The translations under genes and the position numbers were made by a program. A stretch of 64,000 nt of DNA from the NCBI RefSeq assembly GCF_000204055.1, contig NW_006768785.1:531958-595957 (forward strand), given 5' to 3'. Below, piece by piece: positions 1,398 through 53,551 of the stretch (position 1 is the stretch's first letter; each line of letters opens with the position of its first letter). The notes beneath the pieces are model-generated. The model was not told where the DNA came from and ran no database searches. It saw only the letters and a list, made by a program, of their open reading frames with translations. The stretch comes from Melampsora larici-populina 98AG31 (Eukaryota; Basidiomycota; Pucciniomycetes; Pucciniales; Melampsoraceae).

Positions 1398-1433
1398 TAT
1401 CCATGATTCGACATTTTGATTTCGGCAGAATTG

Positions 1434-18268: not shown

Positions 18269-18438
18269 TACGGAATACATACAGGGCCATCCTGACACAA
18301 GGGCATTACAGGGCAGATATGTACTTTTTTTCTATTCCAAATTCAGCCGTGCACCAATCCATGTACACCATGGCCAGTCTGACACACAAAACCAGAATTT
18401 TGAATCACTCAAAACTTGACTGTCAGTATGGCCCTTCA
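18269..18438 (+). repeat. E1 left terminal inverted repeat
   Basis: This 170-bp arm is the reverse complement of 27354-27523 with only a few substitutions and two compensating 1-bp indels. It contains the motif GGCCA..CTGACA twice in one orientation (near the tip and mid-arm) and once inverted near its inner end, a likely array of transposase-binding sites (inference). Confidence 0.9.
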
Positions 18439-18734
18439 GTGTATCTATGCCATCCTTAAAGGTCCAGACTGACAAAACTTTCAGCCAAGTTAAAACTCCC
18501 ATACATAAATACCTTTTTATACGAAAACCCTTGCCACCCTTGCACATCACCGACACTTAGGGCTATCATAGTGTATAGCCTGTCTCCTTTCCATTTTGTA
18601 TCGGTTACACATAAGCACTTCATTGAAATTCTTCTGACTACTCTACTCACCTTCACATCATCACCTTGCATTGTTGCTCGACACAACTTTGAATCAATTT
18701 AATTCAACTACATTCTCCCGAATCACATTTGATC

Positions 18735-20297
18735 ATGCCAACCTACCTCAAAAAAGATTTACTGAATCAAGTCCTAACCAATGGTTTTGAAAACAATCTC
18801 AGCATTAAAAACATCCAAGAAAATCTTCAATGCATCCACAACATCACCATATCAGAGAGGACAATCTTTCGGTATAACAAGAAATGGAATTTGAAAAAAT
18901 CTGATGCTGCTCCACCAAAACCAGACATCTCAATCACATTCGATGCAATCTCTAAACATTATCATGAAGGCAAGAGTAACAGTGAGATCTTGATTGCGCT
19001 GCAAAATCAGGATCAAATCGAGATTGGCAAACGAACACTTAGACGACACATGAAAAAAATGAACCTGACTCGCAAGCTCGATGATATTCAAAAGGAACTT
19101 TATACAGTTGAGGAGATGAAAGATATTATCAGAGAAATTCAACAGGAGAACCATGAAAACACTGGTATTCGATCATTGAAGTCATTGTTACTTAGTGAAC
19201 ACAAGATTCACATACACAGGTACTTGACTCTTTTTTCCAATTATCACATTCAGATGTGCTTACTGACCATTTCTATCATTTTCAGAGAACGGCTTGCTGA
19301 GATCCTCAGACAAATCGATCCTGAAGGAGTTCAAAATCGCCGAAAACGAGCTCTTGTCCGTCGGACATTTCGATGTCCTGGTCCCAATTATATATGGTCG
19401 GCTGATGGACACGACAAGCTACAAAAGTGGGGCCTACGGATTTATGGGTTCATTGATGCATGGTCACGCCGAATACTTGGTCTCTTTGTACATGTTACTA
19501 ATAGTGACCCTCGGCATATCGACATTTATTATCTTGAGATGGTCAAGCGCTATAAGGGTATTCCTCAATATCTTCATACCGATCATGGAACTGAAACAGG
19601 CGACATGGCTGCCAGTCATTCAACACTTGCATTTATTTATGCCGGTTTAAACGAGGCCGAAGCACTCAAGAGACACAAACACAGCAAGTCTGTTCATAAC
19701 CAGAAGATCGAGTGTTTCTGGGGTCAATTATGTCGCCATCATACCCGAGGAATCATTGACGGGTTCTATAAGATGATGGAGCAGGGCAAGTATGATCCTC
19801 TCAAACCACTTGACCGGTCAGTTCTTTTGATTCTAACATTCAATCAGCCCTTTTTGAACTAACTTCCGTTTTTATACAGGCTTCTATTTCTTTATTTATT
19901 CATACCCTTCATGCAGACCCACTTGAACAAATTCAGTAAGCAATACAACACTTACAGAAGACAAAAGGATCCCCAAACTGTGCTTCCCAGTGGCACCAGT
20001 GCAGACTTTTGCTATCAGAACCCACAGGAAATGTTTGGTGAAACCGATCAATTAATTCCAGTACCTTCAGATGAAATCGATAAACAATTCGCTGAGAAAT
20101 ATCCTGATATACAAAGTCTCTTTTCATATACTCCATCCTGGTTGTCCATAATTGCTGATGCAACAATGATCACCTTAAATCTGCATCATGATCGGCTCAA
20201 GTTTGTAAACATTAATCAAGCATTCTCCTTGATGAAACATGCATTGATTGCTCAGGATTGGAGTGGGACACCCTTCGAGGGACTAGAATTTATTTGA
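18735..20297 (+). CDS. Integrase-type (rve-like) DDE transposase of E1, apparently intact
   Basis: Three exons fit one open frame: 18735-19219, 19286-19816 and 19880-20297, with GT-AG introns of 66 and 63 bp, giving 477 residues. The start MPTYLKKDLLNQ is the first ATG of the frame. Residues 1-150 hold helix-turn-helix-like segments (SERTIFRYNKKW and KRTLRRHMKKMNL). The catalytic core follows: WSADGHDKL (Asp about 202), LHTDHGTET (Asp about 261) and QKIECFWGQL (Glu about 304), giving D-58-D-42-E. The core type is that of fungal integrase-like transposases, which cut and join the element ends in the nucleus. The C-terminal third (LPSGTSADFCYQNPQEMFG) is shared with the E2 copy. It is the only transposase in the window with all three acidic residues and no internal stop. 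Confidence 0.88.
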
Positions 20298-20536
20298 AGT
20301 CATTAATTAATTTTTTTGTATTTCCTTTTATCAAAATTATAAACCTGAAGCCAGTTCAACAGTGGCCGAATCAGAAATAGGTAAAACTTGAGATTTTTTT
20401 GTTAGTGTATGAAAGTAAAATATTCTCATTCAAATTCAATCCCATCACAGATATATCTATCAAATGCATAGATAGTATTAGTCATTCACCATGAACATCA
20501 TTGCCAATGAAATATGATCATTCAACCAAGCATTGA

Positions 20537-20963
20537 GTTGATTTAAAAAAAGTTGTTTTATGGTAACCCAATCCAACAAAAATATAAGCTAATACAATGT
20601 GAACTCTAATGATGGACAAATAAACTACATATGAACAAGGGTGTGGAGGTGTCAGCTATCTGTCAGCGCAACCACTGTTCACCCAGATTCGAAGGATACT
20701 CCTGAGTCTGCGGCAGTGAACAACATCCAGCCTGTAATGTGTTTCATATCATGAATATGACTGTAGTGAGTTCAAACCCAGGGTGGGAAAGGATTATGAC
20801 CAATTTGTGAAATTATGATTTCTGATCCAAATCATATAATGATGATCATCTCTATGAGACAAAAGCTTTGAAGAATGCAGTAAATTGAATCTGAAATGTT
20901 CCACATATATAATTGATAATTCTTTCCAAACTTGTTTGATCAATAAATTTTATGTACACATGA
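20537..20963 (+). repeat. Left arm of 427-bp inverted repeat around the TET/JBP-like gene
   Basis: Begins GTTGATTTAAAAAAAG and ends TATGTACACATGA. It matches the reverse complement of 24201-24627 without indels and with about five mismatches (roughly 99% identity). No clear target duplication flanks the pair. Confidence 0.92.
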
Positions 20964-21072
20964 TTGGTTAGTCAATCTTATGACATAAACTATAATTGAC
21001 AATTCTTTCCAAACTTTTTTGATCAATAAATTTTATGTACACATGATAGGTTAGTCAATCTTATTACATAAA
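20911..21072. repeat. 79-bp tandem duplication at the inner end of the left arm
   Basis: 20911-20989 and 20994-21072 are direct copies with only a few differences, both running from AATTGA(T/C)AATTC to CATAAA. Only the first is mirrored in the right arm, so the second copy arose on this side alone. Confidence 0.85.
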
Positions 21073-21232
21073 TACTTCATTGATTGGGTACTCAATTTTG
21101 ATAGTCTATATCCAGGGACTGTATACTTTCTGGTATTATCTTTTGGTTTCATTTCTTATCATTCTCCAAGGGATTTATCCCAACTTGTTTCTTTTTATTT
21201 TCCTCTTACTATTATCAATCATTAGTCCCATC

Positions 21233-24182
21233 ATGATGAATTATTCCACATTCAATCCTAACACAGCTGGGTCTCATTACAATAATCATTCAGATGATTA
21301 CCATCATGAATATCATGGATCTAGTCATCATCATTCTAGGGATGTTTATGATCAATCAATTGCTACTCACCAGCAACCTTATCATCATGGATCAATCAGT
21401 CATCAGCATCATCATCAATATGTTCCCCCCATCATCATCCCAATCATCATCCTCATCATTTGAATGAGTATCCTGATGAATCTTACAATCATTCCCAATG
21501 GCAGTCCATTGAACCCAATGAACCCACACACCATTCTAGTGATACCCCACCTCATAACACTACACCAGATTGCAAATTTACCGCTGAGTTTAGAAAATTA
21601 GGCAAACATAGAAAATTATACACACAGCAGAAGGGGTCAGAAAAATATGAAAAAATAAGGGTTGCATAGCCCTGCATGTGCCTATAATTTTGCATATTTT
21701 TTCATGTTTCTATGGCAGCAGTGTATATCAGGTCAGAAACCCAGCTTTTGTCCAAAACTGGCACTTATTTAGTCATTAATCTTGTGAGACAAATAAAATT
21801 GTCAATTTTGGTTCACCATATGTAATTTCTTTGCATTCTAAATGCTGAATGTTTGATTTACAATGTACACATTGGAATGGGCGGCATGTGTCCAAAAATG
21901 ACTAAGGTACAGCAATCACAGTCCCCATCAGCAAAGCAAGAAAAGCTTATAAATCTTTGCCGCAATGGTTATAGCATCTAAATGAAAATTGTAGATCCTG
22001 GGTGTGGCTTTCATAATTTGTGACTACCAAATTGATTGGAAAAAAATTGGTGTCTTTGTGAATATTCAAACATTTCTGCCCAAACCTTGGTAGTTTTGGA
22101 CATAATTTGGGTTTCTGACCAAATATACCTGAACATCATTTTTCTTTGAAACATCTTCAACACTAAAGGTAAAAATAAGAAACAATATGTAAAAGAAGGA
22201 GACATCAAAGGTGGATTCGGCCATAATTTTTCAATTTTTTTCAACCCCTTAAGCATTGCTCAGAATTTTCTTCATTTTGACTTTTCTAAACTCCATGGTA
22301 AATTTTTGATTTGGTGTAGTGTAACCAGTTTCCATTGATTGATGAGCATCATCAGTTATATCATTATCATGATCTCGCCATCAATCCACATCCACATCCA
22401 TATCCACATCCACATCCATATCCCCATCAACATCAACATCAACATCAACATCAACATCAACATCAACATCAACATCAACATCAACATCCAAATCAACATC
22501 CAAATCAACTTGATTATTATCATAATTCATCAAATAATCAACATCCAAATCAACGTGATTATTCTCATAATTCATTAAACAATCAACATCACCCTCATCT
22601 TGTCCATCCTGGTAGACAAAATCATCAAATCTCAAATTATGCACATCAATCAAGTGTTCATCAGCAAAATAAGCTGAGTGAACATCAAAAGCAATTAGCT
22701 GGTCCTTATCATACATTGATCAACCATGCTCATGAAGCAAGAGCTACTCATGATGGGTGGGTAAAACCTCAACACCAAACATCAAATATTACTATAGGGG
22801 ATCAAGGTGAGTATTTTTTCTTCTTTAAAACATATGTTTACTTATATTCTTATCCATGCACAGGTCAAGTGGGGTTGAACCTTGGATCATCTAGGATGGG
22901 TATGTTATATCAGTCTTCTAATATGACATAATTTTGAGCTGATCTGGATTAAACTCTTTATATAGATCATAGGCGGGACGTGAGTATCCTTTTTAAACAT
23001 CAATAGTCATGATTTCATTTGTTCATTGCATGACTTGGTCATTACAGCATGCACGAAGGCGTAGGGAGAAGATATTCAAAGGTGTGGTGACAAACTCAGC
23101 TGATCTTAAAGTTCATTATGTCAGGGTCAACCGATTTTTTGGGCAAAGAACATCAGAAGTCAAAGATGCTATCAATATTGCAAATTCTGAATTGACCATA
23201 CACTTACATGAGAAAATTTGTGTTATCTATGATCAGAATGAGCAGGAAGTCATAGGCATTATCCAATTTTTGCCTTTCAGAGAGATGAGCAACAAGAAAT
23301 TTAAAGAATTGGAAGAAATTTCAAAGTACCTTGCAGAAGAAAGAAGATTTTGTCAGGAGATAATGGGGAATGCATTTCAGCGATCAGGACACATGTATGC
23401 GCTTGGCTGGACAGCTGCATTTCATAAAAAATATTTTTATGGTGAGTAATGGGATTCCTTATGATTTACAAAGCAAACTAATAGAAATCTTCTCTCCTTG
23501 ATAAGCTACTTATTTACCTCCATTACATATCCGAGATGATCCTATTGCGTGTAAAGAATTGATGGCACGTTTACCCTTTAGAGAGGATATCGAGAATTTT
23601 TATATCTCTGAATTTGGTAGTCTATCAAAGCACTTCTTGAAGATCCAACAAGAACAGACTCGAGAACTCAAAGTACCTACATTGGGTCAACTAACCGAGA
23701 ACAAGGAAGATGACAAGACCGGTCTAGGTTCAAATCTCACCTTCACCTTTGAATCTTTCTCCAATGTTCCACATCAAGACCATGATGTATCCAAAACAAC
23801 TTTTTTCCTCTCAGTCCCAGTATTCAACAATGGCAAGCTTGCTTGTCATTCAGAGGGATTTGATGTGATCAATGGACGATTACTATTTAATGATTGGGGT
23901 ATTGCAGCAGATCTAGGTTCATGTGATGGTGCTGTTACAGTGATCTACTTTGGAAATAAGGACCGACATTGTACTCTTCCTTCTCAAGAACCATCAGGCA
24001 GGTTTACTGGATTAAGTAGTTCTGTTCAGATTAGTAAAAGACTTTTTGAAAGGGTAACAGCATATGCTACTCCTGAATCTCAATTAGGAAAGGGTAAAAG
24101 TGTGGCTAGCCCAGAGAATCTGGTTCTAGAATATAGCAAAGACTTGGTCCAGTGTTTTTCTGATTTTAATATCATAGTTTGA
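21233..24182 (+). CDS. TET/JBP-like 2-oxoglutarate/Fe(II) dioxygenase gene of E1, with a MITE inserted
   Basis: The likely start is ATG at 21233 (MMNYSTFNPNTAGS); the hydrophobic stretch before it is probably untranslated. Coding continues to 21557, is interrupted by a CACTA MITE (21558-22321), and resumes in the same frame with a His/Gln/Pro-rich tract (HPHPHPYPHP then repeated HQ) at 22375-22490. Later exons include about 22866-22931, 23060-23440 (NRFFGQRTSEVKDAI; GNAFQRSGHMYALGWTAAFH) and 23503-24182. The last exon has the catalytic core: NLTFTFESFSNVPHQDHD carries HxD, DRHCTLPS a candidate distal His, and GRFTGLSSSVQ the candidate 2-oxoglutarate-binding Arg. TET/JBP enzymes oxidise 5-methylcytosine or thymine in DNA; the substrate here is unknown. 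Whether the MITE is spliced out is not visible. Confidence 0.75.
21558..22321. mobile_element. 764-bp CACTA-type MITE inside the TET/JBP-like gene
   Basis: The ends are CACTACACCAGATTGCAAAT on the left and, reverse-complemented, CACTACACCAAATCAAAAAT on the right, followed on both by TTACC and GAGTTTAGAAAA. TAA lies directly outside both ends (21555-21557, 22322-22324), the 3-bp duplication made by CACTA (CMC) elements. It has no transposase. Removing the MITE and one TAA joins DTPPHN to QFPLIDEHHQ in a single frame. Confidence 0.9.
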
Positions 24183-24200
24183 AAATAAGAAAAATCAACT

Positions 24201-24627
24201 TCATGTGTACATAGAATTTATTGATCAAACAAGTTCGGAAAGAATTATCAATTATATATGTGGAACATGTCAGATTCAATTTCCTGCATTCTTCAAAGCT
24301 TTTGTCTCATAGAGATGATCATCATTATATGATTTGGATCAGAAATCATAATTTCACAAATTGGTCATAATCCTTTCCCACCCTGGGTTTGAACTCACTA
24401 CAGTCATATTCATGATATGAAACACATTACAGGCTGGATGTTGTTCACTGCCGCAGACTCAGGAGTATCCTTCGAATCTGGGTGAACAGTGGTTGCGCTG
24501 ACAGATAGCTGACACCTCCACACCCTTGTTCATATTTAGTTTATTTGTCCATCATTAGAGTTCACATTGTATTAGCTTATATTTTTGTTGGATTGGGTTA
24601 CCATAAAACAACTTTTTTTAAATCAAC
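24201..24627 (-). repeat. Right arm of 427-bp inverted repeat around the TET/JBP-like gene
   Basis: Inverted, nearly identical copy of 20537-20963, starting 19 bp after the dioxygenase stop codon. The high identity contrasts with the decay elsewhere and implies a recent origin or gene conversion. Confidence 0.92.
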
Positions 24628-24741
24628 ATGACTCGAGATCATTTATCATTCTTAATGTAGAATGATATTATTTTGATATTGGTGAAGATAGTTTCATTAT
24701 AGGAATGAATTTTAGGAGGGTAGTACAAAAAGATATATACA

Positions 24742-27075
24742 TTAAGTTTTTTTCTTTGGCCGAAGTCTCTTTCCCCAATCATCTTCTGCAGGTTGTTCAC
24801 TGGGAATACTACTGAAGATATCAGCAAAAGAATATTTACGAGCATCATGATCATAGTCATGTCCTTTGGATTTTGCTTGGGCGATCATATCTTCTTCATG
24901 AATGATCTCATGTTCATGATTCAAGGAACGACCTGGTAAAAGTGGAAGTCCTAGATCCCGACAGAGTGAATAGCATTGATGATCCTTCTTGAACTTTTCA
25001 ATACCCTCTTGAGCGGTGTTGGTCTCCTCAACCCAGGCATTTCTACATAATAATATAGTCAGTGGAATGCATATCAAAATAAAAACATCTTGGCTTACTT
25101 GACATCTAGAATGAGGGGGTCGGTAAGATATTCACCAGCCCCTTGTAGATCAGCAACCAGCCTCTTATGATCATTTATCTTGTAGACATAGTGTGTAAAT
25201 GCAGCAAGGGACAAGTCGACAGTACTCGTAACTGATTGTATCTTAAAACACATATTTGAGGTGTACTTTTTGAATGGCCATACATTCTCAGGTTTAATAT
25301 CTTGAGAGTTCGATCCAGAATAGGCTACAAATGATTTTACAAGCTACTTATTCGATGTCAGAGCCTCCATCATAGTAGATACTTATATATAGACCAAATA
25401 TGCTTACCTTAAAATCGTTTATTATAGAGTCATAAGGCCAGCCTATTTTTGTTTCTTGGAATTTTTCTTGGAAGAGCTTTAGATACTTTTTGAAAGCCAT
25501 GTAGGTCTGCATAGTCTTTATATAAGGGTCCAATGGTCTTTTCTTGAACCTCTCATAATTGATCATCTGCTTAGCCACTAGCTTACATATGTCACCCAAT
25601 GACTCTCCAACTGCTTGATAGCAGATACGAGTGGAACCTCAACCAATCTCTTGATCAACGAAAACCTTGAATCTAAATGGGACAGGTACCCAGGTGGCTC
25701 AACCCTCTTTGAATTGTAGCACAAGCTTCCTACCTTCAGTCAGCTGTAGTTGATTCGACACTTTAGGTTGATGAACAGGTAAAGGCTTTGCAAACATAGC
25801 TACACCCATTGGGTTGATGTTTGCCGAGTCATCTATGAATGGGAGTGGGAAAGGGTTCAGATGAGATTGGACACTCCTGAATAAAACTGAGACTCACATG
25901 TAGTATCATCTTTTATTGTTTCAAGATCATTTGTAACGGTATTTAACTTAGTAACCTTGGTACCTTGTAGTTGTTGTGACCAACGAGTTTCATAATTGAA
26001 TTGAGTGGGAAGGATGGTGCCAAAAGGCACAAGAGTTGTTCCACTTCCAGGTTTGAAATGAGCTGAATCGTTGGATCTCACAGAATCGATAATACTGGAA
26101 TTGACTATGTTGGCAGAAGGGTCGGAGGTGGAATGCTGAGTTAGGAGCTGAGAGGTGTATGGTTTTGCTGTGGATGATGAGCTTGAAATTTTACTCGGAT
26201 CAAATTGTGGAAGGTCATATTCATCAGAGCCAGACGATATCTTAGTTGGTTTGCCTTTTCTTTTGCCTTTTTCTTGCTTTGATCGTCTCTTAGGTGCATG
26301 CAATTGTGATGACCCAGAACTAATACAAGTATCTAGCTCCTCTTCAGATGTTGATGGTTCGTTGTGTTGTTGCCTTTTCGATTTCTTCATCTTTGTATGC
26401 TTGTCTTTCTTGCCTAAAGTTCCAAATCGCTTGTTGTACCGGTCAGAATTGAACTCAAGCTCTGAAGTAATTTTGCCTTCACACTTCAAAGTGTCCTCCA
26501 GCACATCCTTCTTGATCTCGACAGGATTACGGCCAGCAGAATTAAGTGTGAAGAAACGATTATACAGATGGTACTCAAAGGGAAAGTCTGGAAGATTTTT
26601 CTTGGCGTCTTTTATTGCTGGTAGAAAGCTACTATAGACAGTATTGCACACTCTATCAAATAATAATTTGGGTGATTCATTCAAGATGATTGGAATTTTG
26701 AAAGATTTTGATTGAGCTGGTAAGTGTTTTTTGGTCGATGTTCCATTATGATACATTTTAATCCTGGCAAGAAAGTTATACTGGGTGATCAGAGGCTGGG
26801 GTGGTGGATCTTTTTATTTTTGATGGGACACATAGGCCTTGACGTTCACGAGACTTTGCTTTGAGGAAATGATTTTGTAGGGTTTGAGTATCTTGCTTCT
26901 TAGCTATGGCTACTTGAGACTGATGGAATGCATGGTCGGCGGTTGGTGTTGTTGTTGTTGAAGAGTTTGACGGATGTGGTGCTAGAGATGCTGAAGTAGT
27001 ATCATGACTATTGGTGGCCACTAATTCGATGATGCATGGTCTACAAGCACCTTCCACTGTTGGTTCAACAGACAA
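24742..27075 (-). pseudogene. Alpha-type protein kinase (MHCK/EF2K-like) of E1, with in-frame stops
   Basis: Minus-strand exons give a Ser/Lys-rich N-terminal part (26756-25857, including FKIPIILNESPKLLFDRVCN) and then the kinase. The N-lobe reads FRFKVFVDQEIG, stop, GSTRICYQAVGES, LVAKQMINYERF (25740-25400). The core reads AAFTHYVYKINDHKRLVADL, then QGAGEYLTDPLILDVK (25270-25100), and the zinc-binding end reads TAQEGIEKFKKDHQCYSLCR DLGL (25040-24960). These are the hallmark blocks of alpha-kinases (LV.DLQG...LTDP; GI..F...H.CN..C..L.L), which phosphorylate Ser/Thr. Two in-frame TGAs (minus codons at 25699-25701 and 25639-25641) each follow Gly where Arg would fit, so CGA to TGA is likely. 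The upstream start near 27075 (CRPC motif) is uncertain and a frame change near 26776 is unresolved. Confidence 0.82.
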
Positions 27076-27353
27076 AGTGTTACAAAGTCAACAAACTAAA
27101 GACATGTTCAGAGTAGTTGAAGTGATGTGTGATCAATGAGAGGATGTCCACTAGCAGCTCAGAGAATTCGTGGGGCTATGGGTAGCATGGAAGAAAGGTG
27201 GGTGATGTGGAATGATGAGATGATCAAAAGTAGCAAGCTACATATAACCTAAGTGTCAGTGGTGCTATGTTCTTGTGAGCTCGTTTTACAAGGGTTTTGA
27301 TTGGTTCGAAGATTGTCTGTCGGCTGGGCCTTCTGGGTGCTGCATGCCAGACA

Positions 27354-27523
27354 TGAAGGGCCATACTGACAGTCAAGTTTTAAGTGATTCAAAATTCTGG
27401 TTTTGTGTGTCAGACTGGCCCATGGTGTACATGAATTGGTGCACGGCTGAATTTGGAATAGAAAAAAGTACATATCTGCACTGTAATGACCTTGTGTCAG
27501 TATGGCCCTGTATGTATTCCGTA
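27354..27523 (-). repeat. E1 right terminal inverted repeat
   Basis: Inverted copy of 18269-18438, ending GTATTCCGTA and followed by ATTCC, the candidate target duplication. The same GGCCA..CTGACA motifs are present. Confidence 0.9.
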
Positions 27524-29052: not shown

Positions 29053-29407
29053 ATTCACAGGAAGGAGACTGAATTAGAGCAAGCCATCATGTGATGATGT
29101 ATTCCACACCAATTCAATTCTTTCATACAAGTAGCTGATATTGCGTTTCGGATTTTTCCAGATTTTCCCTTGCTCATGTAATTCCATAAATATTGGTTTC
29201 CCGCTCTTTGTCCTGCCTGATCAAAAACTTGACTTGTCCTGAAGTACTGTGCTCTTATCTAAAGGTACTATTTGAATCTACCAATCCACTGACTCACTAT
29301 TCCAACACCAAAAAACAATAAAGACTGAAAAAAACTTTTCAGACTCCGTTTCTTCACTTTTCCATTTTCAACTCTTTCAAGATCAAAAATAGTGGTGACT
29401 TTTCCTT

Positions 29408-37925: not shown

Positions 37926-37979
37926 CAGTGGGTAAACCCGAGTACATGTTCCGACCTGCCCTGCAAAATTGAAATTTCT

Positions 37980-42703: not shown

Positions 42704-42857
42704 TACGGAAGCCCTGAGCAAGGGGGGTCCGCCAATCATCAAATCAAATTGTCAATTGTAAATTACAGTGGGGTGTTGGCCACTTTACATATACACATAA
42801 CACAAAACTACACCCCTCATTTCAAAAATCAACTCAAACAATCATCACCACTCACTC
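42704..42857 (+). repeat. E2 left terminal inverted repeat
   Basis: Inverted match to 53392-53545 with moderate divergence. Several differences are CpG in the right arm versus TpG/CpA here (GCGAGG versus GCAAGG). A GGGGTCCGCCA motif near the tip is echoed by GGGGTGT..GCCACTT further in. Confidence 0.88.
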
Positions 42858-43067
42858 TTCAAGACCTTCATCATCTCCCCGGATACACAGGACAGGCTTT
42901 GTTAAGCATCATGCTTAAAAAAGTAGAAGACTCATATTGGTGCATCGGATGGACACCATGGACGCGTAAGCCTCCCAATTTCTCCCCTAAATTACCCAAA
43001 TTCCCTTCGAAAATTGACTTTTATCCCTCATTCTCTAACAGTAGCTTTGTTATACCTCGAAATAGCC

Positions 43068-45575
43068 ATGCCTCTTCCAATCTTTCAAACTGGACCGTGC
43101 CCTGGGTGCAGTGCTCTTTTCAAATTTCGAATCAAAGATGTGTGCGATGAATGTACCGATCTGGAGAACATCAAGGAAGGATTGCAAATTCCACGAAAGG
43201 ATTACTGTGAGGGTTGTGGTGATGGATACCAACATTTGAAGGACAACATCTGTGGTCCTTGTTGAGGATTATCTTCTAATTTATCGGCAGTTGCATCTCC
43301 GCTTTTGAATGTCAGACTCGGCTTGAATTCAAACAATCATCAAAGCCGACAAGCTAGCTCTTCTCGTTCTTCCCGCTCTCTGACAACACCCGATATATTA
43401 ACCAAAATCGATGAACTTACTCCAAGTTCCTATAGTGAGGTGTCTCAAAGTCGAAAAATTGGTACAAAGATCCCAACTGCTGTCACCATTGGCCAGAAAA
43501 AACACAATCAACACAGCCTCATTAAAGCACCAACTAGCCTGACTTTACCAGATTCCCATCGGTCTCACTCATCAATTAGTCGTGGTCCAAGGGGCATCAA
43601 TCATCCATCAAAGATACAATCAACAAACAATACTAAATCCACACCAATTGATTTTGTCCACCAGATTGATGGCAACCCAATGCCACACAATTTCACTGCT
43701 TTCACGATCTCAGTGGATCTCAGCAATCGATCATGGTATTCAAACTTTAAGAAGGGTGCATTTGAGTTCTTCCGTATGAAATCAGTCGATAAATTACCAA
43801 GCAAATTTCAATTAGATGATGGGTGTCCTGAGGTCCCAGAATTTGACAAGCGATGGGTATACTTAGGTCAGGTTCGAAATAAGAGGAGTGTTATTTTCTC
43901 TTTGGAACAGCATGTTGTTGAGCTGTTGGAGCGTCCACCACAACGGGGTGCTTTATTCTTTGTGATGTTTAATGCCAACGATTATCTTCATGTCAAGCAA
44001 TCAGAAAATGCAGCTACCTACATATCCAACAAGAAGAAAAAGCGGCGGTATGGTGGTGACTCAGAGGCATACTTGCCTTCTGATGATCTTTCTGATTCTT
44101 TGGCTGGAGAAACAACAAATCATCTTACCATTTGCAAATCCAAACGATTACGATTACAATCTCCGTCAGGAAGCTGTGATGAATCACAGCTTCCTTCTCA
44201 AGGATCCGATGGTGGTGGTCTCCCAGATATTGATGATTATCTTGATGATAATTCCTCTTTCTCATCACATATTATAATTACAAAGCTGACTAAACTGCAT
44301 ATTATACAGGTCCAACTGTCACCCCGACACAATTGAAGACACCATTCAAGGAGACACAGAGTAAGTGAATGAAACTCCAATAGGTTATTGATTCAGGTAT
44401 GGTTTTGATACTTTTGAATATATGTAAGACCAAACACTCTAAGTAGTTACCTCTGAATCAGTAAACTTACCCGAGAAACGCACTTGGGTGTCAGAAGTAG
44501 GAGGTAAGTCAAATTACATTCCCAGTAGTGTCTATCAGCTCAAGGCTGAATCAATTGCTTTACTTTAGTTTTGGATCCTACATTGAAACCAATACCACTT
44601 GCAATTTCAAAATCTTTGGAAACTGCAGGTTGCTGCCCTGATAACACTCGACCGTGGTATTTAGGAATTGCAAAAACGTTAACTATCCTGCAGGAGTCAG
44701 AGGAATCTGATACTGCCTCTGTGGCTGGGGAGTTCGAAATTGGATGGATTCGCCTTGAAGACTTTGTTAAATTTAATGAAACCGACCCCTCCTATGTGGG
44801 TGATGTGATGCTTGGGAGTGAATTATTCACAAACTTCCTCTTGAATCCTTACGGCGGCTCTACATATGGTTCTTCAATCGATTACAATCCAAGTGATCCA
44901 AACTATAGGCTTTGTTTGAGTGCGGAGGTACAGAGATTGATTGTGAGCTTTCAAAAGAAGGTGATTGATAACTTGGGAATTGCACCTGATATGCGAGAAA
45001 TGTGTCTTTCACTCCAAGTAAGTCCTAATAGTATATTTTAATGACGTACTTCAACTAACTATTTACACCATTTGGTCAATTGCATACAGGTTGCTAAAAC
45101 TCTCACCTTTACAACCGCTCATGAATGCAAGGAACATCCCAGGCTATTTTTATGTAGGGAACAAGGAGTCAGAGAATTGGAATCTTACATGACTCCAACA
45201 GACTTTACACTAAAGAAACCGTACAAAAATCTGCACCAAATCATGCATGCTCTGGCCCATTCTAGTCTAGATGATAATGATGGCAAAGCGATGGTAGTGG
45301 TGTTGGAATCTCAGGGAGGATTAATTACTGATTTTTCGATGCTGAATTTGACGTAAGTACAGGTTTATAGCTAATAAAAACTTGCAGTACAGCAGTATAC
45401 TGATGCTAAGGTTGGATTTTTTGCTTCAAGTTGGCCGTTGGAGAGTGAAAACCAAGGTGAAGTACGGATTCAAAATTTCAGGGCTAGCCATCACTGTTCA
45501 CCTCTATGTGGTCTCCTTGGCCTCCATAAATGTGATGTACCATACGGAGAGCAGGGAAGTATTGATGAGATTTAG
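43068..45575 (+). pseudogene. Alpha-type protein kinase of E2, with an in-frame stop
   Basis: The start at 43068 (MPLPIFQTGPCPGCSALFKF) opens a Cys-rich zinc-ribbon-like region (CPGC, CDEC, CEGCG, CGPC). TGA at 43263 interrupts the frame, which then continues (LSSNLSAVAS) into a Ser-rich linker and SWYSNFKKGAFEFFRMKSVD, WVYLGQVRNKRSVIFSLEQH. Later exons give EIGWIRLEDFVKFN (44730-44775), MHALAHSSLDDNDGKAMVVV LESQGGLITDF (45240-45340) and GEVRIQNFRASHHCSPLCGL LGL (45455-45530). The last two align with the E1 kinase blocks LVADLQGAGEYLTDP and GIEKF..DHQCYSLCRDLGL, and the intron after the TD(P/F) block is at the same place. DLQG has become ESQG. This copy is more diverged and may lack activity. 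Confidence 0.72.
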
Positions 45576-46012
45576 CTGCTGTGGTTTGTTTTAATGCTAA
45601 ACTTCTACAGAGTGTAGAAAATGAAAAGAAATTGAAAGTCATATTTGACACTTTTTCATATACATGCAGTTGAGAGAAGTGGAGTGATTCTTGCTACATA
45701 ACAAATGATTTGAGAAGCAAAACAAATGAAGGTAACAAATGATATCGGATGAAAAGAAATTGAGATAAAAAAGAACTAGCTGCAGATCAGAGCAACTGCA
45801 AAACTGGTCAAGCCAGGCGCGCACATCTATGCCTTGGTCTTTGCCTCCCTGACATCAGACTGGCACCATGATCCAGTTTTAACAAGACTGAGTACATGTC
45901 ATTCTCCCTTTTCGAGAAGGTTCTGCATTGCACAAATAAAGAAGCAGTCATTCTTTTTCCAGCTCAGTCTAATGATCAATGTACATGAAATAAAGAAGCA
46001 TTCATTTTTTTT

Positions 46013-48332
46013 CTATCTCAGTCTAAAGATCCACATACAAAAAATCATTACTATGGCTTCCACTTCTTCCAATATATCACTACAATCCAAGATCTTACGC
46101 TCACAAGCTGAGGTGAAATTATATTGCTCCTCTGTGTCCTTCTTCACTGCTGCTTTTGCAAGGCTTGAGGTGATCTGAGAAGAACACCCTAGGCGAGTAT
46201 AATGAATTTTCTTACCATCTGGTCTTGGGATCTCCACTTCCTTCGATTGCATCGTTTGATGAAAGGTACTCTTAACACTCCATGCAATTTGCAAAGCATA
46301 TTTCCGGCCCGTTTTTAAGGCAATTTGCCATTTGGGAAACAAAAACCAGCCTCCCTCTAGTTCAAATGCCCCACTCTCAGTAACTATTTCCCAACTGATA
46401 GAATCTATGGGATACCAAAAACAATACACCTTACCCTTGTCATTATCTGTATGAGGCTTATTATGAAAGTTCCCAAAGGTAAACACAAAGTTACCACAAA
46501 AATTGGTTGGTGCTGGAGGATTGTCCTTACTGGTGGCAGACATTGGTGGTGCATCCAACTCCCTGAGTAGCGATTGTGACTGAAGAAATGCCGCATCGGC
46601 AAAGGTTTCGAATCGAGATCCGACATTCAATCCAAAGTTAGGAAGTTGACTTAAAAAGAGGCGATACAGTGATAGCAAGGATCCAATAACGGGCCGATAA
46701 GGTGAGAACATGATATCACTCGCATACCCAGCCCTTTGGCCAAAACAGTACATATTACCCTGGATAAGCGCTCCATTGGTAGTTGGCCGAGTCTTCTTGG
46801 CTTCAGGCAAAGAATGATGTAGTGATTCATCTTGCAAATCAGATGAAGTAAGAGGTGTAAGAGGTGATGAATCAAGGGCATTATTATCCATGCTCGATAT
46901 ATCTTCCAAACCAGTATTCTTATTAATGCTAATCTGTCTATCAATTAATGACCGTTCATCAGTTGAAGTTGTTGTTTTAATTGATGTTTTAGTTGCTTGA
47001 CATAAAGTTGCTTCAGTATTGGTAGTAAGTGGTTGGGGTTGGGCTTTGGGTTTAGGTGTGGTTGGTAGGCGTTGAAAAAGCTGGCTTGCCATCATGATAA
47101 AATCTACATCCTTTTGATGTTCATCAAAAGTTTCCTTCTTCATCTCTTCCAAGTCATCAAATTGAAAGGTACATATTAATTTCTTTGTAAGCATATCAAT
47201 GAATTGGCCATGTCCATATTTGTAAACAGTGTAGAGGTTGGAGATAATCTCCATGGTACGCTCGTAATCTTCCACCGGTAGGACTGGATCGTTAAATCGT
47301 AAATTTTCCTTATTCAAGCCACCTCCAAGCTTTTTGGCATTTGCCGGTGACTGATCCGACTGTCGTTCTTTATTAGCTGTATCACTACGAATAACATGTC
47401 TCCTGCAGAAGAGATAGTCATGCAGATAAGGCATGATACTCAGTCCATAGCCTTGCGGAAGAACATGAATGAAGTAATGCTTACACAATTCCCTGGCGCC
47501 TGCTTTTTGGTGTTGCCACGTACTCAAGACCGGCGCAGTTGGCATTATGATCACCTTCAGCCCTATTGGTGTTATCATCACCTTCAGCTAAGTTGCGCAA
47601 CCTGTTTTGGGCCCATAAACTATGGATACATACATTAGCATAGATCCATAGTTACTCCTGTGTAGTTGGTGACACACTTATGTTAAAGCTCTGGTACCTT
47701 GTTTGCGGCCCATTGCTGGAACTGAATATCTACAAGCTTCATGCAGCCAATATTCGGTTTTGGCGTAGCCATCCTTGGCCAGGTAGGTATGCGGAAAATG
47801 GATGAAAGACTTGAGTGCTATAAATGGCATAGGAAGCTGGAATGTGATCCATTTATGCTCAATTAGTTTAGCTGGAAACGTTACAAATGTACCGAGATTG
47901 TAATAACTTACGTCTTCTGTGCTATGTCCCTTCTGGCAATCTCGATTGATCCCTTCCAGGAGGTCTGAAAGCCACTTTACCCCAGGAATTCCATCTGGTT
48001 GCACATATCCACTGACAAATCATCCTTAGGGTTAGAAAAGAGCATGTGTAGATATCCTGCATATACAACAACCAAACACTGACCTCGGTTCCTCAATTAC
48101 GCTTGAATACCTAGGCCTCTTTCTATGTAACCAATTGATATCCTTTGTAGGATGATTGAGAGCAACAATTGCTTCATCTTTGGCAACACTGAACGTAGGA
48201 GATATGAGCTGAGAGACAGAAGTGGTAAAAAGGAAGCAATATCTAGGTACTTACGTATCCAAAGACAATATCCCCTTTGGATTGTTCTTCATACTTGATC
48301 ACTATGTGGTGGTCAGTCAACACAAATGCCAT
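46013..48332 (-). CDS. TET/JBP-like 2-oxoglutarate/Fe(II) dioxygenase of E2
   Basis: A likely start at 48332 reads MAFVLTDHHIVIKYEEQSKG with a GTAAGT donor shortly after. Following exons give AKDEAIVALNHPTKDINWLH, QPDGIPGVKWLSDLLEGINR (about 48000-47700) and a long last exon from 47581 to 46013. That exon has a Ser/Thr/Pro-rich linker, then FVFTFGNFHNKPHTDNDKGK (HxD), the GWFLFPKWQIALKTGRKYAL core, STFHQTM (candidate distal His) and YTRLGCSSQI (candidate Arg). The spacing and flanking pattern match the E1 dioxygenase (FTFESFSNVPHQDHD; NGRLLFNDWGIA; GRFTGLSSSVQI). The long exon has no internal stop. The substrate is not deducible; base oxidation of DNA is the family role. Convergent with the alpha-kinase, with about 440 bp between stops. 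Confidence 0.8.
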
Positions 48333-48747
48333 ATTAGTTTTCTAAGGGTCATTACACACCCAAAATAGCAGCCAAATCACCCGACCTTACCAGATGGAGG
48401 GTTAGTAAAGTTACAGGTGATATACTTGCAAGGTCTACAAAGTCAATTGATGATATCAACCTGAACCCGCTAATAAACCTCCAGATGGTAGGCCAACTTC
48501 TTTGACTACTATTGGGTAAGTATGATCATGGAAGAACTGATAATTACCTCATACCACAAAATTCAACCTCGCCTAAGATATCAAGGTGTGAAGGTCAGAA
48601 TTGATTGATTATCGATTTTGGTATTTTCAAGAAGGAAGAAGACAAGACTTACCAAGGTAAGTAGACAAGAGTGGAGTGGAAAGTTGTGAGTCTAGATCGC
48701 TTACCAATACAACCCAAATACAAAATTTTGTATACTTATTTTCCAAA

Positions 48748-49563
48748 CACTACACAAAATATAATATTTTCTGGGCAGAAAATTAAATTATTGATACACA
48801 AAAATATTGAGAGGCCAGGAGAAGGGCAAAAAATAAATAAAAATATGCATCTTGTTCCCTGCGGTGAGAGCTTCACTCTCCATATTTTTCCATATTTTTA
48901 CAGTCTGTATTGATAAGTGTACTAACAATAAACCTTCATAATCATCCAATTACAACCTGTAACAAGCACTGAAATTTGGCTCATTAGTGTTTAGAGAAAC
49001 TTTTGATTTCTGAAAACACCTATAACTTTGTCGAATCTGCCTCAAAACACTCAATTTTAAGTGCATTAGAAAGCTGAACTCTTCACCTCGAACTTTCATA
49101 AGATCAAGAACTATGTAGCTAGTATGACAATCATTCTATGGATCTGTATGTACAAATGTATAAAAAAGATGATATCTTTTTTAGCAGACCAGCATGCTGT
49201 GTGGTCCTCTTATGAACTATGTGGAGGACAATTCCAGCTTACCAATGCACCCAAAATCGAGCGTTTTGGACCGGAATTGAAAAAGTTATGAGTATTTTCA
49301 GAAATCAAAAGTTTCTCTAAACACTAATGAGCCAAATTTCAGTGCTTGTTACAGGTTGTAATTGGATGATTGTGAAGGTTTATTGTTAGTACACTTATCA
49401 ATATGGACTGTAAAAATACGGAAAAATATGGAGAGTGAAGCTCTCACCGCAGGGAACAAGATGCATATTTTTATTTATTTTTTGCCCTTCTCCTGGCCTC
49501 TCAATATTTTTGTGTATCAATAATTTAATTTTCTGCTCAGAAAATATTATATTTCTTGTAGTG
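48748..49563. mobile_element. 816-bp CACTA-type MITE
   Basis: Ends are CACTACACAAAATATAAT on the left and CACTACAAGAAATATAAT (reverse complement) on the right, with AAA directly outside both (48745-48747, 49564-49566). The inverted arms extend about 270 bp and are highly similar, for example through GGCCAGGAGAAGGGC and TCATTAGTGTTTAGAGAAAC. No coding region. It sits upstream of the E2 dioxygenase start, so it could affect that promoter (inference). Confidence 0.9.
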
Positions 49564-49566
49564 AAA

Positions 49567-51711
49567 TAAGATAGGTAAACAAAATTGGTCCAATTTTGGG
49601 TGTAAAGCGTTCATCCATTTCAATCTTATAACATCAATTTATTACACAATGATTAGCCATCCCTTGCCTAGTTATTACTAGGTGAGGTATGGTAGTATAG
49701 CGGGGTTTAGGCCTCCCGTATGGAGAGTTCTTCCGGGATAGTTACCTGGAGAACTCTCTCATTTGTGAGACCTGTTGCAGGAGGGCAAACAAGAGACTTC
49801 TGTGCGAGTCCTCTCAGATACAGGGGCTCACACAAGCCGCTTGTACCCTCCATGGTGTTACTTAACCTTCTACGCTTCAGCTGGGTGGGCGGGAGGACAA
49901 AAACTTTGTTAGTTCAAAACTGATGTCTATAAGTTGTACTCGTTAGGATTGTGAGGATGAGTATGAGGAGAATAATGATAATGTTAAGATGAGGACGAAT
50001 CACGAGGGGACGGTGTGACTACCTTTGATTATACCACTTACACATGTGGTACACTCGGAGTTACGCTCGGACCTCCTCCTGACCTCTGGGTCGGATTCGA
50101 TAAGATCTTCACATCTAGCATTTCACGTGGTACATTACCGCGACGTTACTCCTTCATGGACTCGTCTTGCATTTTGTGCCTCGAGCAAGAGGCAAAGAAA
50201 CGATACGATAACAAATTTGATTAACTGATCTGAAATTTACTGAATCTGAATGTTAGAATACGTCAATTAGTAACAGTATGTATTCTGGAATAAGTATCTG
50301 AAAACAGCTTTTCTGATTGAGTACTTACTTATTCAAAGATGGTGAAAAACAATCGATACTTTGTTACTTTGATATCAATAGTCGTTTCAATCGATCCAAA
50401 GTCACCAAAGGCCAGTTATGATACAATACAAACGATATGTAAGGAGCTGATCTAAGGAGCTCTTCCGATTGTTCCAAAGTCACCCAAATCCCAGTCCTGA
50501 TACAAATCAGTTGGAAAAGTTTGAGTTAGATGAAGATTGGAAATTGCAATCACTCAACCTGTTTAAAAGATACTAATTGAGATCGATCGATCGATCAATC
50601 ACACTCAAGTTACTTTTAATGATTAGAAAGTATTTGTTCTGATTGAGAGTATGAAGTGAAGAAAGCTGTATTGTTTGAAGGAGAGTTGTTGATATATCAA
50701 AGATACGATGAGAATAAAGAGGAAGAATGAGATATCAATTATCAATTCAAATTTAAGGAAGTCTTTAAATATAAAAGAATAAATAGTACATACCAATCAA
50801 AAAAAAACTTGAAATGTTTTCTGATGATCTGATTTTAGGATACAATTACCATATCACAATCAAACACAAAGTAAGCTTAGTTGTTTTGATGGGTGATTGA
50901 TTGAGTTACTAACTAAATGGTGATGACAGTTAGATATATCAACCTCATTTGCTTTTTTTGAAGAAAAGAGCAAGAAGTTCAAAACCCTGCGCTAAATTCG
51001 TTTGTTTATAGGTTGCTTGTTTGTTGGTTTGTTCGTTTTTTCGTCTGTTTGTTATGGTTTTCAACAAGAATTGATGAAATTCAGCTCGAGTTCGTAAGTC
51101 CGACAATACAGTTGGTAAATCACAGGAGATCACGAGGCAACACGTGATCCCAATAAAGCTTGTACATGTACGCACAACCTGGGGAAAATCTGAGTTTGGA
51201 CCAATTCAAGATATTCTTGTTGAACTTGCTTTGGTATTTGTTAATGCAAGAGGCAAAGAAATGAAGGTTTTTTTAAACAAACGTGATATTCAGGTACACT
51301 CAAAAAAATAAAACACATCTGACTGAAAAAAGTAACACAAAAGCAAACAACTGTTGCAAGCAAAGGTTCTCAAATGCACACAATGAAAAAAACTTCACTG
51401 AACCTATTGGTCTTATAAGTTTTGAGACCACTGAGTATTATTGATTGAGTTGGATCTTCTACTGATCGGACTAAACTAATTTTTCATTTGTTAAACACTT
51501 AGGATATTGGACAGTATAAATGTATAAAAGACATTGACAAAAAGCCCTTTCTCCATCAGTTCTCGCATTCTTCCACACCATCATCATCACTTTCGTCTAT
51601 AAATTTGTATTCACTTTTGTGCAAAGTTTCCAATTCTTCATCTTCAATTTCTTCAATTTCTTCATCGTCTTCGTCTTCATATTTGTGATTTTGAGAATTG
51701 TTCTCTGATTT
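49567..51711. other. E2 spacer, no gene recognised
   Basis: About 2.1 kb between the MITE and the transposase stop. Short plus-strand frames at 49720-50228 have no recognisable domain. 49705-49770 has a small inverted pair (GGAGAGTTCTTCC / GGAGAACTCTCTC). 51560-51710 is rich in CTTCATC/TTCAATTTC repeats. Its absence in E1 may reflect an extra insertion. Confidence 0.45.
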
Positions 51712-53245
51712 TCAATCATCGAGGTTCAGGTCCTGCTCTTTCAAAATTTGATGCATTGCTTCGAGGAGATCCCACACAGAGTTGATATCCAGTGTGTCTA
51801 CATTCCAACCTAGTTGAGATATCAAATTGGTGAACAGAGTACTGAATGGTTCGACTGTTACCACAGACAGTTCATCCCCGTCAGGATAGTACTTATCAAG
51901 CATTGCCTGTACAACATCGGCCGGTACAGGGGTAATGCCTTCTTCTCCATTGTAATCTTTGGGGACAAAATAGCATACATCGGCTGGTACACCAGTCGGA
52001 AGGGCAGAGTTACGGTTCTTGCGTGTCTGGTAAGAATTCTTTTCTTCAACATACTCGGCCATCATACGCTGGACTAGTGGGATGAATAAATGTAGAAAAA
52101 ATGCCCTGTAGGAGAATTAAGGTTAACTGATAGTGGAGAGGGAGATACTCATATAGAAAGTGAAATGACTTACTCTTGAAGTGGATCACTTGGGTTGTAA
52201 CGCCCTTCATCTACTGCCTTTTTGATATTCTTACGAATTGAGATGTTTTTTGCACGCATCAATTGTGACCAGAGTGATTTGATCTTTTGATTAAATGTTG
52301 ATTTAGTAAAGATCTGTCTCTTTCTAGCTTCATCTGCATCATCTTGGTGGAAAACTCTAGCAAACGCCATTTGATGAGTGGCCATATTTAATGTCTCAGT
52401 TCCATGATCGGTAGATGTTTGTTTTGGAAAGCCTCCACATGCTGCAACAGTTTCAAGAAATTGAACCCCAATTCGTCGAGGATCGTTGTTGTTCTTACCA
52501 ATCTTCAAGCTAAGCATTTGACGCGACCAGGTGTCAATGATGCCATACATGGTAATCCTGTAACGTTTAAGTTTGTCATGTCCATCGCTTGCCCATGTGT
52601 GATTTGGGCCACGCACATGGTAGACTCGTCGCTTCAATCAATGCCTTTTACGCAAAGCAACCCCATTGGCATCGACAACCGAAAGGAGTTTGGCCACAGC
52701 GTTTCGATTGAGCCGGACGGATTTGGCAGTTCCCATGATATGAGCCATACGATGTGATCCTGCATTTTCATCACCAGCTTGTTTCCTTTCAATCATCTTT
52801 CTTGCTGCTTCCTCAGCTGTAATAAGACCCAGCTCTATATCATCTTTACGCCAATGCAATCCTATTTGTTTTGATAATGATTTGAGCATCGTCATTGTAA
52901 ATAAAGGAAACTTGTGACGGGTTTGTATAACTCAAACCACTTCTTTTTGTTGCCATCGTTTGGTATGATATTCCTTCATGAGAGTTGCACACTGATCTTT
53001 GTTGGCTTGACTGAGGCTAGGTTGAGCAGTACTCAGCTTAAGTCGCTGGAGATGTCTTTGGAGGCTACAAAGAGACAGATTTTTGTAAGTAGATTGCTGA
53101 CAAAGGAGGTCTAGTAGTTGTTTCTGGGTGAGTTTTTGTTGACAGTGTTCAACCAAGAGTTCATCGAGTCCTGGGTCCAAGGGCATACTGATCATGAAGA
53201 ATCTACTGGCGGTTGTAATGATCAAATCAGTTTGTAGCATTCATC
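51712..53245 (-). pseudogene. Integrase-type transposase of E2, inactivated
   Basis: Homologue of the E1 transposase. The N-terminal part (53240-52932) has LCSLQRHLQRLKLSTAQPSL and ends in TGA at 52932-52934; 52895-52638 has AEEAARKMIERKQAGDENAG and SVVDANGVALRKRH, then TGA at 52638-52640. The core (52637-52170) keeps HTWASDGHDKL (first Asp) and STDHGTET (second Asp), but the third acidic motif reads NQKIKSLWSQL where E1 has NQKIECFWGQL, a Glu to Lys change. After an intron at the same position as in E1, the C-terminal part (to 51712) has LPTGVPADVCYFVPKDYNG, matching E1 LPSGTSADFCYQNPQEMFG. Not active as written. Confidence 0.85.
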
Positions 53246-53391
53246 AAGAGATGTGGAATGAGAACTTACTTGTATATATGCACGCAGTTGTGTGTAAGGA
53301 GGTTGGTGTTGAAGGGGGATGGTATACTGTACACTGATGAAAGTGTAATCTTAAGACTGGCGAAATTGATCTTGATGCCAATGAAAGGGCT

Positions 53392-53545
53392 CAGTGGGTG
53401 TTGATGATTGTTTGAGATGATTTTCGAAATGAGGTGTGTAGTTTTGTGTTATGTGTATATGTAAAGTGGCGGACACCCCACTGTAATAGACAATTGATGA
53501 TTTGATTTTGGGAGTGGCGGACCCCCCTCGCTCAGGGCTTCCGTA
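53392..53545 (-). repeat. E2 right terminal inverted repeat
   Basis: Inverted counterpart of 42704-42857, ending GGGCTTCCGTA and followed by the TTTGAA duplication. Both internal CCGCCA motifs are better preserved here. Confidence 0.88.
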
Positions 53546-53551
53546 TTTGAA

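What the first reader, a model, noticed from the sequence alone, without database searches (positions are those of the whole stretch)
18269..53545. A transposon family carrying an integrase-type transposase, a TET/JBP-like dioxygenase and an alpha-kinase, present twice
E1 (18269-27523) and E2 (42704-53545, reversed) have the same three genes in the same order and orientation, bounded by inverted repeats that share TACGGAA at the tips. Seen: gene order, catalytic motifs, shared intron positions in transposase and kinase. Known: fungal TET/JBP genes have been described as cargo of KDZ transposons, and TET/JBP enzymes modify DNA bases. Inference: here a different transposase type is linked to such an enzyme plus a signalling kinase, so the element may edit its own chromatin marks and influence host signalling. 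Two diverged copies argue against chance nesting.
Basis: partly seen in the sequence, partly recalled or inferred. Interest (0 to 1): 0.93.

Follow-up and report, generated by a model that had tools for sequence, protein, structure and literature searches.

The report
Rust-fungus transposons with swappable DNA-oxidising gene
Two jumping genes in a rust-fungus genome carry a protein kinase and a TET-like DNA-modifying enzyme; this kind of element was described in 2025, but here a leftover gene tail indicates that the enzyme gene has been replaced inside a nearly identical copy.

Summary
E1 (18269-27523) and E2 (42704-53545) are real transposons: long inverted repeats ending TACGGAA..TTCCGTA, target duplications (E1 5 bp, E2 6 bp), an integrase-type transposase (Pfam rva_4), a Tet-like dioxygenase (PF20515) and a convergent alpha-kinase. 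The combination is not new: Kojima 2025 (PMC12730594) describes it in rusts as TET+ IS3EU transposons; E1 and E2 are new members. 'Present twice' is an undercount: of 77 transposase loci, 47 have an alpha-kinase and 21 a TET gene within 15 kb. New, as far as my searches show, is TET turnover inside IS3EU. E2 and a sister element (C23) are 94% identical in repeats, transposase and kinase but carry different TETs; C23 still holds a 12-codon tail and stop of the E2-type TET, so that gene was replaced. Their relative C9 carries a TET 94% identical to that of a distant IS3EU. E1 has a fourth TET lineage. The proposed anti-silencing role got no support from an indirect test: C/T differences between E2 and C23 are 10.9-fold enriched at TCG, and transposase genes of TET-bearing elements are no less TCG-depleted than others (12 versus 20 loci).

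The parts
18269..18438 (+). E1 left terminal inverted repeat (starts TACGGAA); ATTCC duplication at 18264-18268
18735..20297 (+). E1 transposase, 3 exons (18735-19219, 19286-19816, 19880-20297), 477 aa, rva_4/rve core, D202-D261-E304
20537..20963 (+). left arm of a 427-nt, 99% inverted repeat around the E1 TET gene; only these two full copies found in the genome
22997..24182 (+). E1 TET/JBP-like 2OG-Fe(II) oxygenase, at least two exons (22997-23449, 23505-24182), preceded by a His/Gln-rich frame; HxD..H present
24201..24627 (-). right arm of the 427-nt inverted repeat
24742..27087 (-). E1 alpha-kinase gene (several frames; low-complexity N-terminal part 25857-27087, kinase domain 24742-25638)
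27354..27523 (-). E1 right terminal inverted repeat; ATTCC at 27524-27528
42704..42856 (+). E2 terminal inverted repeat, kinase side; TTTGAA at 42698-42703
42927..45356 (+). E2 alpha-kinase gene (frames 42927-43265, 43266-44336, 44550-45041, 45045-45356); diverged, LESQG where DLQG is expected
46013..48019 (-). E2 TET/JBP-like oxygenase (46013-47587 plus an upstream frame 47678-48019), of a partly KDZ-linked TET clade; C-terminal end altered by a frame-shifting deletion
46067..51369 (-). middle segment of E2 that does not align with its 94%-identical sister element at C23 (there 3.4 kb with another TET)
48748..49563 (.). hairpin-like repeat (356-nt arms) inside E2; 96% similar copy in L076, related ones in L014/L075
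51712..53240 (-). E2 transposase, decayed (two in-frame stops, Lys at the third catalytic position)
53393..53545 (-). E2 terminal inverted repeat, transposase side; TTTGAA at 53546-53551

Best explanation
E1 and E2 are cut-and-paste DNA transposons of the IS3EU kind, of the TET-bearing subtype already known from rust fungi. SHOWN from sequence: the transposase-kinase backbone, its terminal repeats and target duplications; and that the TET gene between them is a replaceable cassette. E2 and C23, 94% identical in the backbone, carry unrelated TETs; C23 keeps the 3' tail of the lost TET; C9 carries a TET 94% identical in DNA to that of a distant IS3EU. INFERRED: the D-D-E transposase cuts at the TA ends and joins to staggered target sites. 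The TET enzyme oxidises 5-methylcytosine on or near transposon DNA and so counters methylation-linked silencing or C-to-T hypermutation. The alpha-kinase phosphorylates the transposase or a host factor to permit transposition (the least certain step). TETs turn over because recombination or template switching during gap repair, with other TET-bearing transposons as templates, replaces the middle of the element while the backbone stays.
For: Repeats and duplications: E1, E2, C32 (CAATAC, 6 bp), C23 (GGAAGC, 6 bp). Domains. Census: 45 of 77 transposase loci have a Pfam alpha-kinase within 15 kb, the nearest one downstream and convergent in 40 of 45; 1,000 rotations gave a mean of 9.3, maximum 20. 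TET within 5 kb: 11 of 77, rotation maximum 7; within 15 kb: 13 of 77, rotation mean 4.7. With added hits: both 15, TET only 6, kinase only 32, neither 24 of 77; TET lies between transposase and a convergent kinase in 13 of the 15. E2/C23: 94.1% over 2,187 nt and 94.6% over 3,372 nt, nothing aligned between. Positive control C32/C7: blocks of 92.4-93.8%, the TET inside the 93.8% block. Relic in C23: DILELPNRKWKP plus stop matches 11 canonical TET C-termini at 4 to 9 of 12 residues; of 3,341 control 12-mers before a stop none exceeds 5. E2's homology to that TET clade ends at window 46067 in 3 of 14 alignments and 1 to 56 nt earlier in the other 11. C9: transposase groups with E2/C23 (support 1.0), TET 94.4% identical to C32's over 392 nt. 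C23's TET has 91-93% relatives at C63, C12 and C15, none near a listed IS3EU transposase.
Against: E1's duplication is 5 bp, not 6. C32's left end reads TACAG, outside TAYGG. No Repbase IS3EU sequence could be compared. TET proximity at 15 kb (13 of 77) equals the highest of 1,000 rotations (13), so the wide distance alone is not decisive for TET. Two of the 15 loci with both cargo genes, C86:49073 and C100:30416, do not show the order. TET function: no protection seen (TTG/TCG ratio, 12 TET+ versus 20 other transposase genes, P 0.57), and E2/C23 C/T differences are 10.9-fold enriched at TCG, so TET-bearing elements do get hypermutated. C23's TET has DLD where HxD is expected. The kinase's role rests on linkage only; E2's kinase lacks DLQG, and C23's has three stops in frames open in E2. 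24 of 77 loci show neither cargo, though recall is incomplete (E2's own kinase was missed).
Confidence: 0.87

Rival explanations
1. TET and kinase are host genes that happen to lie between unrelated transposon pieces (chance nesting).
For: The genome holds many TETs and kinases (at least 150 and 147 hits), so some neighbours are expected; TET proximity within 15 kb was matched by the best of 1,000 rotations; E1's TET sits inside its own 427-nt inverted repeat.
Against: Kinase within 15 kb of 45 of 77 transposases against a rotation mean of 9.3, convergent and downstream in 40 of 45; whole elements bounded by repeats and duplications at E1, E2, C23, C32; C32 and C7 keep the whole order in blocks of 92-94% identity.
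Confidence: 0.03
2. E1's TET lies in a separate nested transposon whose ends are the 427-nt inverted repeat, so only the backbone belongs to IS3EU.
For: 427-nt arms, 99% complementary, flank the E1 TET; E1's middle does not align with C32/C7.
Against: No other full copy of the repeat was found in the genome, I see no target duplication at its outer ends, and the two frames scanned inside it match only TET. An inverted duplication around a captured gene fits as well.
Confidence: 0.2
3. E2 and C23 each received their TET independently into a TET-less backbone at the same spot, rather than one replacing the other.
For: With two sequences alone the outer boundaries look the same either way.
Against: C23 keeps the 3' end and stop of an E2-type TET across the border, up to 9 of 12 residues identical to canonical ends.
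Confidence: 0.08
4. TET is decayed baggage with no benefit to the element.
For: No TCG protection detected; C23's TET has lost the HxD histidine.
Against: E1 and E2 keep HxD..H in open frames; many relatives are open frames; repeated acquisition is hard to explain without benefit (inference).
Confidence: 0.2

Closest known systems
TET+ IS3EU transposons of Pucciniales (Kojima 2025, PMC12730594)
   Same: TET gene between transposase and an oppositely oriented alpha-kinase; TIR over 30 bp, TAYGG..CCRTA, 6-bp duplications; seven Pucciniales species including M. larici-populina and M. medusae; three IS3EU families have TET in the transposase's orientation, as E1 and E2 do.
   Different: E1's duplication is 5 bp. 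In the parts read, the paper's Melampsora TETs form one cluster (M1); here one genome has at least four TET lineages on IS3EU-type elements, a replacement relic and a recent TET transfer between distant IS3EU lineages.
IS3EU/GingerRoot superfamily (PMC10045372, passages read)
   Same: TA..TA termini, usually 6-bp duplications, integrase-like core.
   Different: The paper has no occurrence of 'kinase'; TET was not searched in it.
KDZ (Dileera) transposons with TET
   Same: TET-bearing; E2's and C23's TETs fall in clades with KDZ-linked members in this genome.
   Different: No KDZ transposase among the listed matches lies in E1 or E2; KDZ elements make 7-8 bp duplications (PMC12730594 passages).
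Ginger1/Ginger2 and Polinton integrase-type elements
   Same: rve-type integrase core; Polinton also makes 6-bp duplications.
   Different: Ginger1 4 bp, Ginger2 4-5 bp (PMC10045372 passages); gene sets differ (recalled).

Membership tests
IS3EU transposon | TA..TA termini | tested here: met
   E1, E2, C32, C23 all TA..TA
IS3EU transposon | TIR over 30 bp ending TAYGG..CCRTA (rust TET+ IS3EU) | tested here: met
   E1 171 nt, E2 153 nt, both TACGG; C32's left end is TACAG, an exception
IS3EU transposon | 6-bp target-site duplication | tested here: inconclusive
   E2, C32, C23 6 bp; E1 5 bp
IS3EU transposon | IS3/integrase-type D-D-E transposase | tested here: met
   rva_4 over cut-off, rve and HTH_21 below cut-off; D-x58-D-x42-E in E1, D-D-K in decayed E2
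IS3EU transposon | transposase groups with Repbase IS3EU in a tree | not testable with these tools
   no Repbase sequences held
TET+ IS3EU of rusts | TET between transposase and convergent alpha-kinase | tested here: met
   E1, E2, C23, C32, C7, C3 read in sequence; 13 of the 15 loci with both genes by coordinates
KDZ transposon | KDZ transposase domain PF18758 in the element | tested here: not met
   no hit inside E1 or E2 among the matches printed (one search prints part of 207; 150 of 555 candidates scored)
TET/JBP-like 2OG-Fe(II) oxygenase | family profile over curated cut-off | tested here: met
   PF20515 147.5 and 118.4 bits, cut-off 27
TET/JBP-like 2OG-Fe(II) oxygenase | HxD..H iron-binding residues | tested here: met
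   E1 and E2 in the alignment; not met in C23 (DLD)
TET/JBP-like 2OG-Fe(II) oxygenase | oxidises 5-methylcytosine in DNA | not testable with these tools
   needs biochemistry
Alpha-kinase | PF02816 over curated cut-off | tested here: met
   E1 52.4 bits genome-wide though single exons are below cut-off; E2 21.6 vs 21.3; element at L076 99.5 bits
Alpha-kinase | catalytic Lys, DLQG, HxCxxxC zinc motif (motifs recalled) | tested here: inconclusive
   visible by eye in the E1 translations; E2 has LESQG instead of DLQG

The most novel reading that the evidence does not exclude
In rust IS3EU transposons the transposase and alpha-kinase form the heritable backbone, while the TET gene is a fast-turnover cassette that is overwritten by other TETs drawn from a genome-wide pool (Dileera-linked and other lineages). 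Three related transposases (C9, E2, C23) carry three different TETs, and C23 preserves the tail of the overwritten one. This would be the signature of an arms race in which elements keep exchanging their anti-silencing enzyme.
Probability: 0.7. Interest if true: 0.62.

Novelty: new member of a known kind. Interest (0 to 1): 0.45.

Why it matters
The architecture itself is published. The data add a directional record, with borders, of one TET gene being replaced inside an otherwise unchanged transposon, and a recent TET transfer between distant IS3EU lineages. Kojima 2025 reports transfers between superfamilies, only one of them above 70% DNA identity, without signatures at the ends (section 3.4 read). 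The census also suggests that part of the alpha-kinase family in rust genomes is transposon cargo: 48 of 147 kinase hits lie within 15 kb of an IS3EU-type transposase (no chance value was computed for this direction). That bears on papers that list these kinases among expanded or fast-evolving rust genes (one table row seen in PMC5295586 and two passages in PMC4150398). The TCG mutation signature gives a computational test of whether transposon TETs protect their carriers.

Tried and rejected
The 7-mer TACGGAA scanned genome-wide was useless (2,570 and 2,599 hits). Short-end scans of L076, L077 and L078 found no convincing ends; L078 may have been cut before its right end. TIR searches found only 5 hits each for E1 and E2, so ends diverge between subfamilies. 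The E1 427-nt repeat as a multi-copy transposon end: no further full copies. PDB sequence search: E1 TET gave only chance-level hits (best E 0.046), the transposase none at E 0.1. TET+ versus TET- TCG depletion: no difference (32 of 77 loci, those with sequence; age not controlled; one outlier, L013, dominates the TET+ mean, so the rank test is the one to read). The left end of the block shared by C23 and C63 was not resolved; the right end lies about 100 nt beyond the C23 TET frame. Empty-site queries were built but never searched; the last genome search went to C23's TET.

Rows and limits: the 77 transposase loci are the 74 rows (two of them below the cut-off) plus 3 loci seen only; other weak pieces were not added. 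TET rows are the 150 scored of 263 candidates, kinase rows 147 matches from 150 scored of 243. In one search, 51 further TET hits and the E2 and C23 kinases were added by hand. Contig lengths in the rotation test were known for part of the contigs and otherwise guessed from the largest coordinate.
Full report
WHAT WAS CLAIMED. Two elements, E1 (18269-27523) and E2 (42704-53545, reversed), each with an integrase-type transposase, a TET/JBP-like dioxygenase and an alpha-kinase between inverted repeats tipped TACGGAA.

WHAT IS THERE. The window is C21:531958-595957 of an unnamed 98.3-Mb genome in 243 contigs. The host is a rust by inference: of the 35 homologues of the E1 transposase 32 bear a name, and these are all Puccinia, at 32-44% identity, so the host is probably another genus. 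E1's inverted repeats align over 171 nt at 95.9% and are flanked by ATTCC on both sides. E2's align over 160 nt at 88.75%, flanked by TTTGAA. Pfam supports the three domains: rva_4 (7.8e-19; 2.7e-17), PF20515 (7e-43; 5.9e-34), and alpha-kinase, weak by exon but 52.4 bits for E1 genome-wide, across one stop that is probably in an intron. E1's transposase is open over three exons with D202, D261, E304. E2's has two in-frame stops and Lys at the third catalytic place, so E2 is a decayed copy.

HOW MANY. The genome has 74 rva_4 matches, two below the cut-off; with three more loci I used 77. A Pfam alpha-kinase lies within 15 kb of 45 of 77, and the nearest one is downstream and convergent in 40 of those 45; rotating positions gave a mean of 9.3 and a maximum of 20 in 1,000 rounds. 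TET (Pfam list) lies within 5 kb of 11 of 77 (rotation maximum 7) and within 15 kb of 13 of 77 (rotation mean 4.7, maximum 13), so at the wider distance proximity alone is not decisive for TET. KDZ transposases, the contrast, are near 1 of 77. After adding hits from the three TET protein searches and the E2 and C23 kinases: both 15, TET only 6, kinase only 32, neither 24; in 13 of the 15 TET lies between transposase and a convergent kinase, while C86:49073 and C100:30416 do not fit. Searches were capped and E2's own kinase was missed by the Pfam search, so cargo is probably undercounted. Kinase plus transposase is the usual backbone; TET was found in a minority.

THE TET GENE IS THE MOVABLE PART. 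E2's nearest relative is C23:635093-644020 (ends; sequence L079): 94.1% identical over 2,187 nt (repeat and transposase) and 94.6% over 3,372 nt (kinase and repeat), with its own 6-bp duplication GGAAGC. The middle does not align: E2 has 5.3 kb (46067-51369), C23 3.4 kb, each with a TET. E2's TET belongs to a clade with 46-60% relatives, 8 of 27 of them within 10 kb of a listed KDZ transposase. C23's TET belongs to another clade, with 91-93% relatives at C63, C12 and C15, none near a listed IS3EU transposase; several wider members are near KDZ transposases. In a tree, E1's TET, E2's TET and the TETs of C32/C7/C1/C2/C3/C9 fall in three places (support 0.99, 0.98, 1.00); C23's position in that tree is weak (0.09), so its assignment rests.

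A RELIC SHOWS REPLACEMENT. Across the right border in C23 (reverse coordinates 5581-5619; the aligned backbone resumes at 5604) the sequence reads DILELPNRKWKP followed by a stop. Canonical C-termini of the E2-type TET clade read, for example, DILELPDRNWKK and stop. The 11 canonical ends compared match at 4 to 9 of 12 residues, and none of 3,341 control 12-mers before a stop exceeds 5. Apart from this tail, tblastn found no significant piece of an E2-type TET in C23's middle beyond the weak similarity expected from its own TET. E2 itself has a small frame-shifting deletion at this place, so its TET ends in residues read from beyond the old stop. So the common ancestor carried an E2-type TET, which in the C23 line was overwritten by another TET. 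As a control, C32 and C7, equally close, share the same TET within a 93.8% block.

FURTHER TRANSFERS. C9's transposase groups with E2 and C23 (support 1.0) and not with C32, yet its TET is 94.4% identical to C32's over 392 nt, beginning about 25 nt outside the TET's 3' end (91.4% to C7's over 475 nt, beginning some 80 nt further out), while the C9 and C32 transposases align only over 235 nt at 63%. Only the 3' part of C9's TET was held. E1's transposase groups with C32 and C7 (support 0.69; their wider clade 1.0), but E1's middle does not align with theirs; its TET is of a fourth lineage (relatives at C8:403, C67:157, C2:847) and lies in a 427-nt inverted repeat found only in E1.

HOW IT WORKS. 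Inferred from the family: D-D-E cut-and-paste at TA ends with about 6-bp staggered joining; TET against methylation-linked silencing or mutation (proposed in PMC12730594); kinase role unknown, most likely a regulator of the transposase or of a host factor. A test of the TET idea: among 134 C/T-type differences between E2 and C23 with unchanged neighbours, 48 are at TCG, 10.9 times the background share, the context named for Pucciniomycotina in PMC12730594. TET-bearing elements are thus hit by this hypermutation. The TTG/TCG ratio of transposase genes does not differ between 12 TET-bearing and 20 other loci (rank test P 0.57; 32 of 77 loci had sequence). Age is not controlled, so this is weak evidence against strong protection.

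WHAT IS KNOWN. Kojima 2025 (PMC12730594; abstract, passages, section 3.4, part 1 of 2 of section 4 and the legends read) describes TET+ IS3EU families in seven Pucciniales species, with 6-bp duplications, TAYGG..CCRTA ends, and TET between transposase and opposed alpha-kinase, in three families in the transposase's orientation. IS3EU has TA..TA ends and usually 6-bp duplications (PMC10045372, passages). E1 and E2 fit, apart from E1's 5-bp duplication. Eleven papers hold IS3EU and kinase (10 listed) and one holds alpha-kinase, transposase and rust; by titles and abstract starts only Kojima's is on this subject. I found no report of a TET replacement relic in the listings, in an open-access library only. 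Iyer et al. 2014 on TET/JBP and KDZ was not read (recalled, and cited within PMC12730594).

VERDICT. Real and correctly placed; the type is known; the turnover of the TET cassette is the part that deserves attention.

Noticed in passing
C21:602852 to about C21:613900 (beyond the window's right end): A third E2-type end (85% over 102 nt) faces a transposase 10 kb away; a probable further IS3EU within 65 kb of E1 and E2, which could settle the order of TET changes.
   Followed up: no
window 48748-49563: Hairpin-like repeat with 356-nt arms inside E2; a 96% copy lies at L076:1-603 and others in L014/L075: probably a foldback or MITE family.
   Followed up: partly
E2 versus C23: C/T differences concentrate at TCG (48 of 134; 10.9-fold over background), i.e. 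hypermutation acts on TET-bearing transposons.
   Followed up: yes
C75:368691, C28:351167, C12:540468, C86:67971: A longer IS3EU subgroup (TET about 11 kb and kinase about 12-13 kb from the transposase) with a further diverged TET fragment in the transposase's orientation.
   Followed up: partly
window 22320-22700: His/Gln-rich repetitive frame just upstream of the E1 TET domain; whether it is part of the protein is unknown.
   Followed up: no
window 447-1433 (-): Reverse transcriptase frame (RVT_1, E 9.1e-33), a retrotransposon piece at the window's left edge.
   Followed up: no
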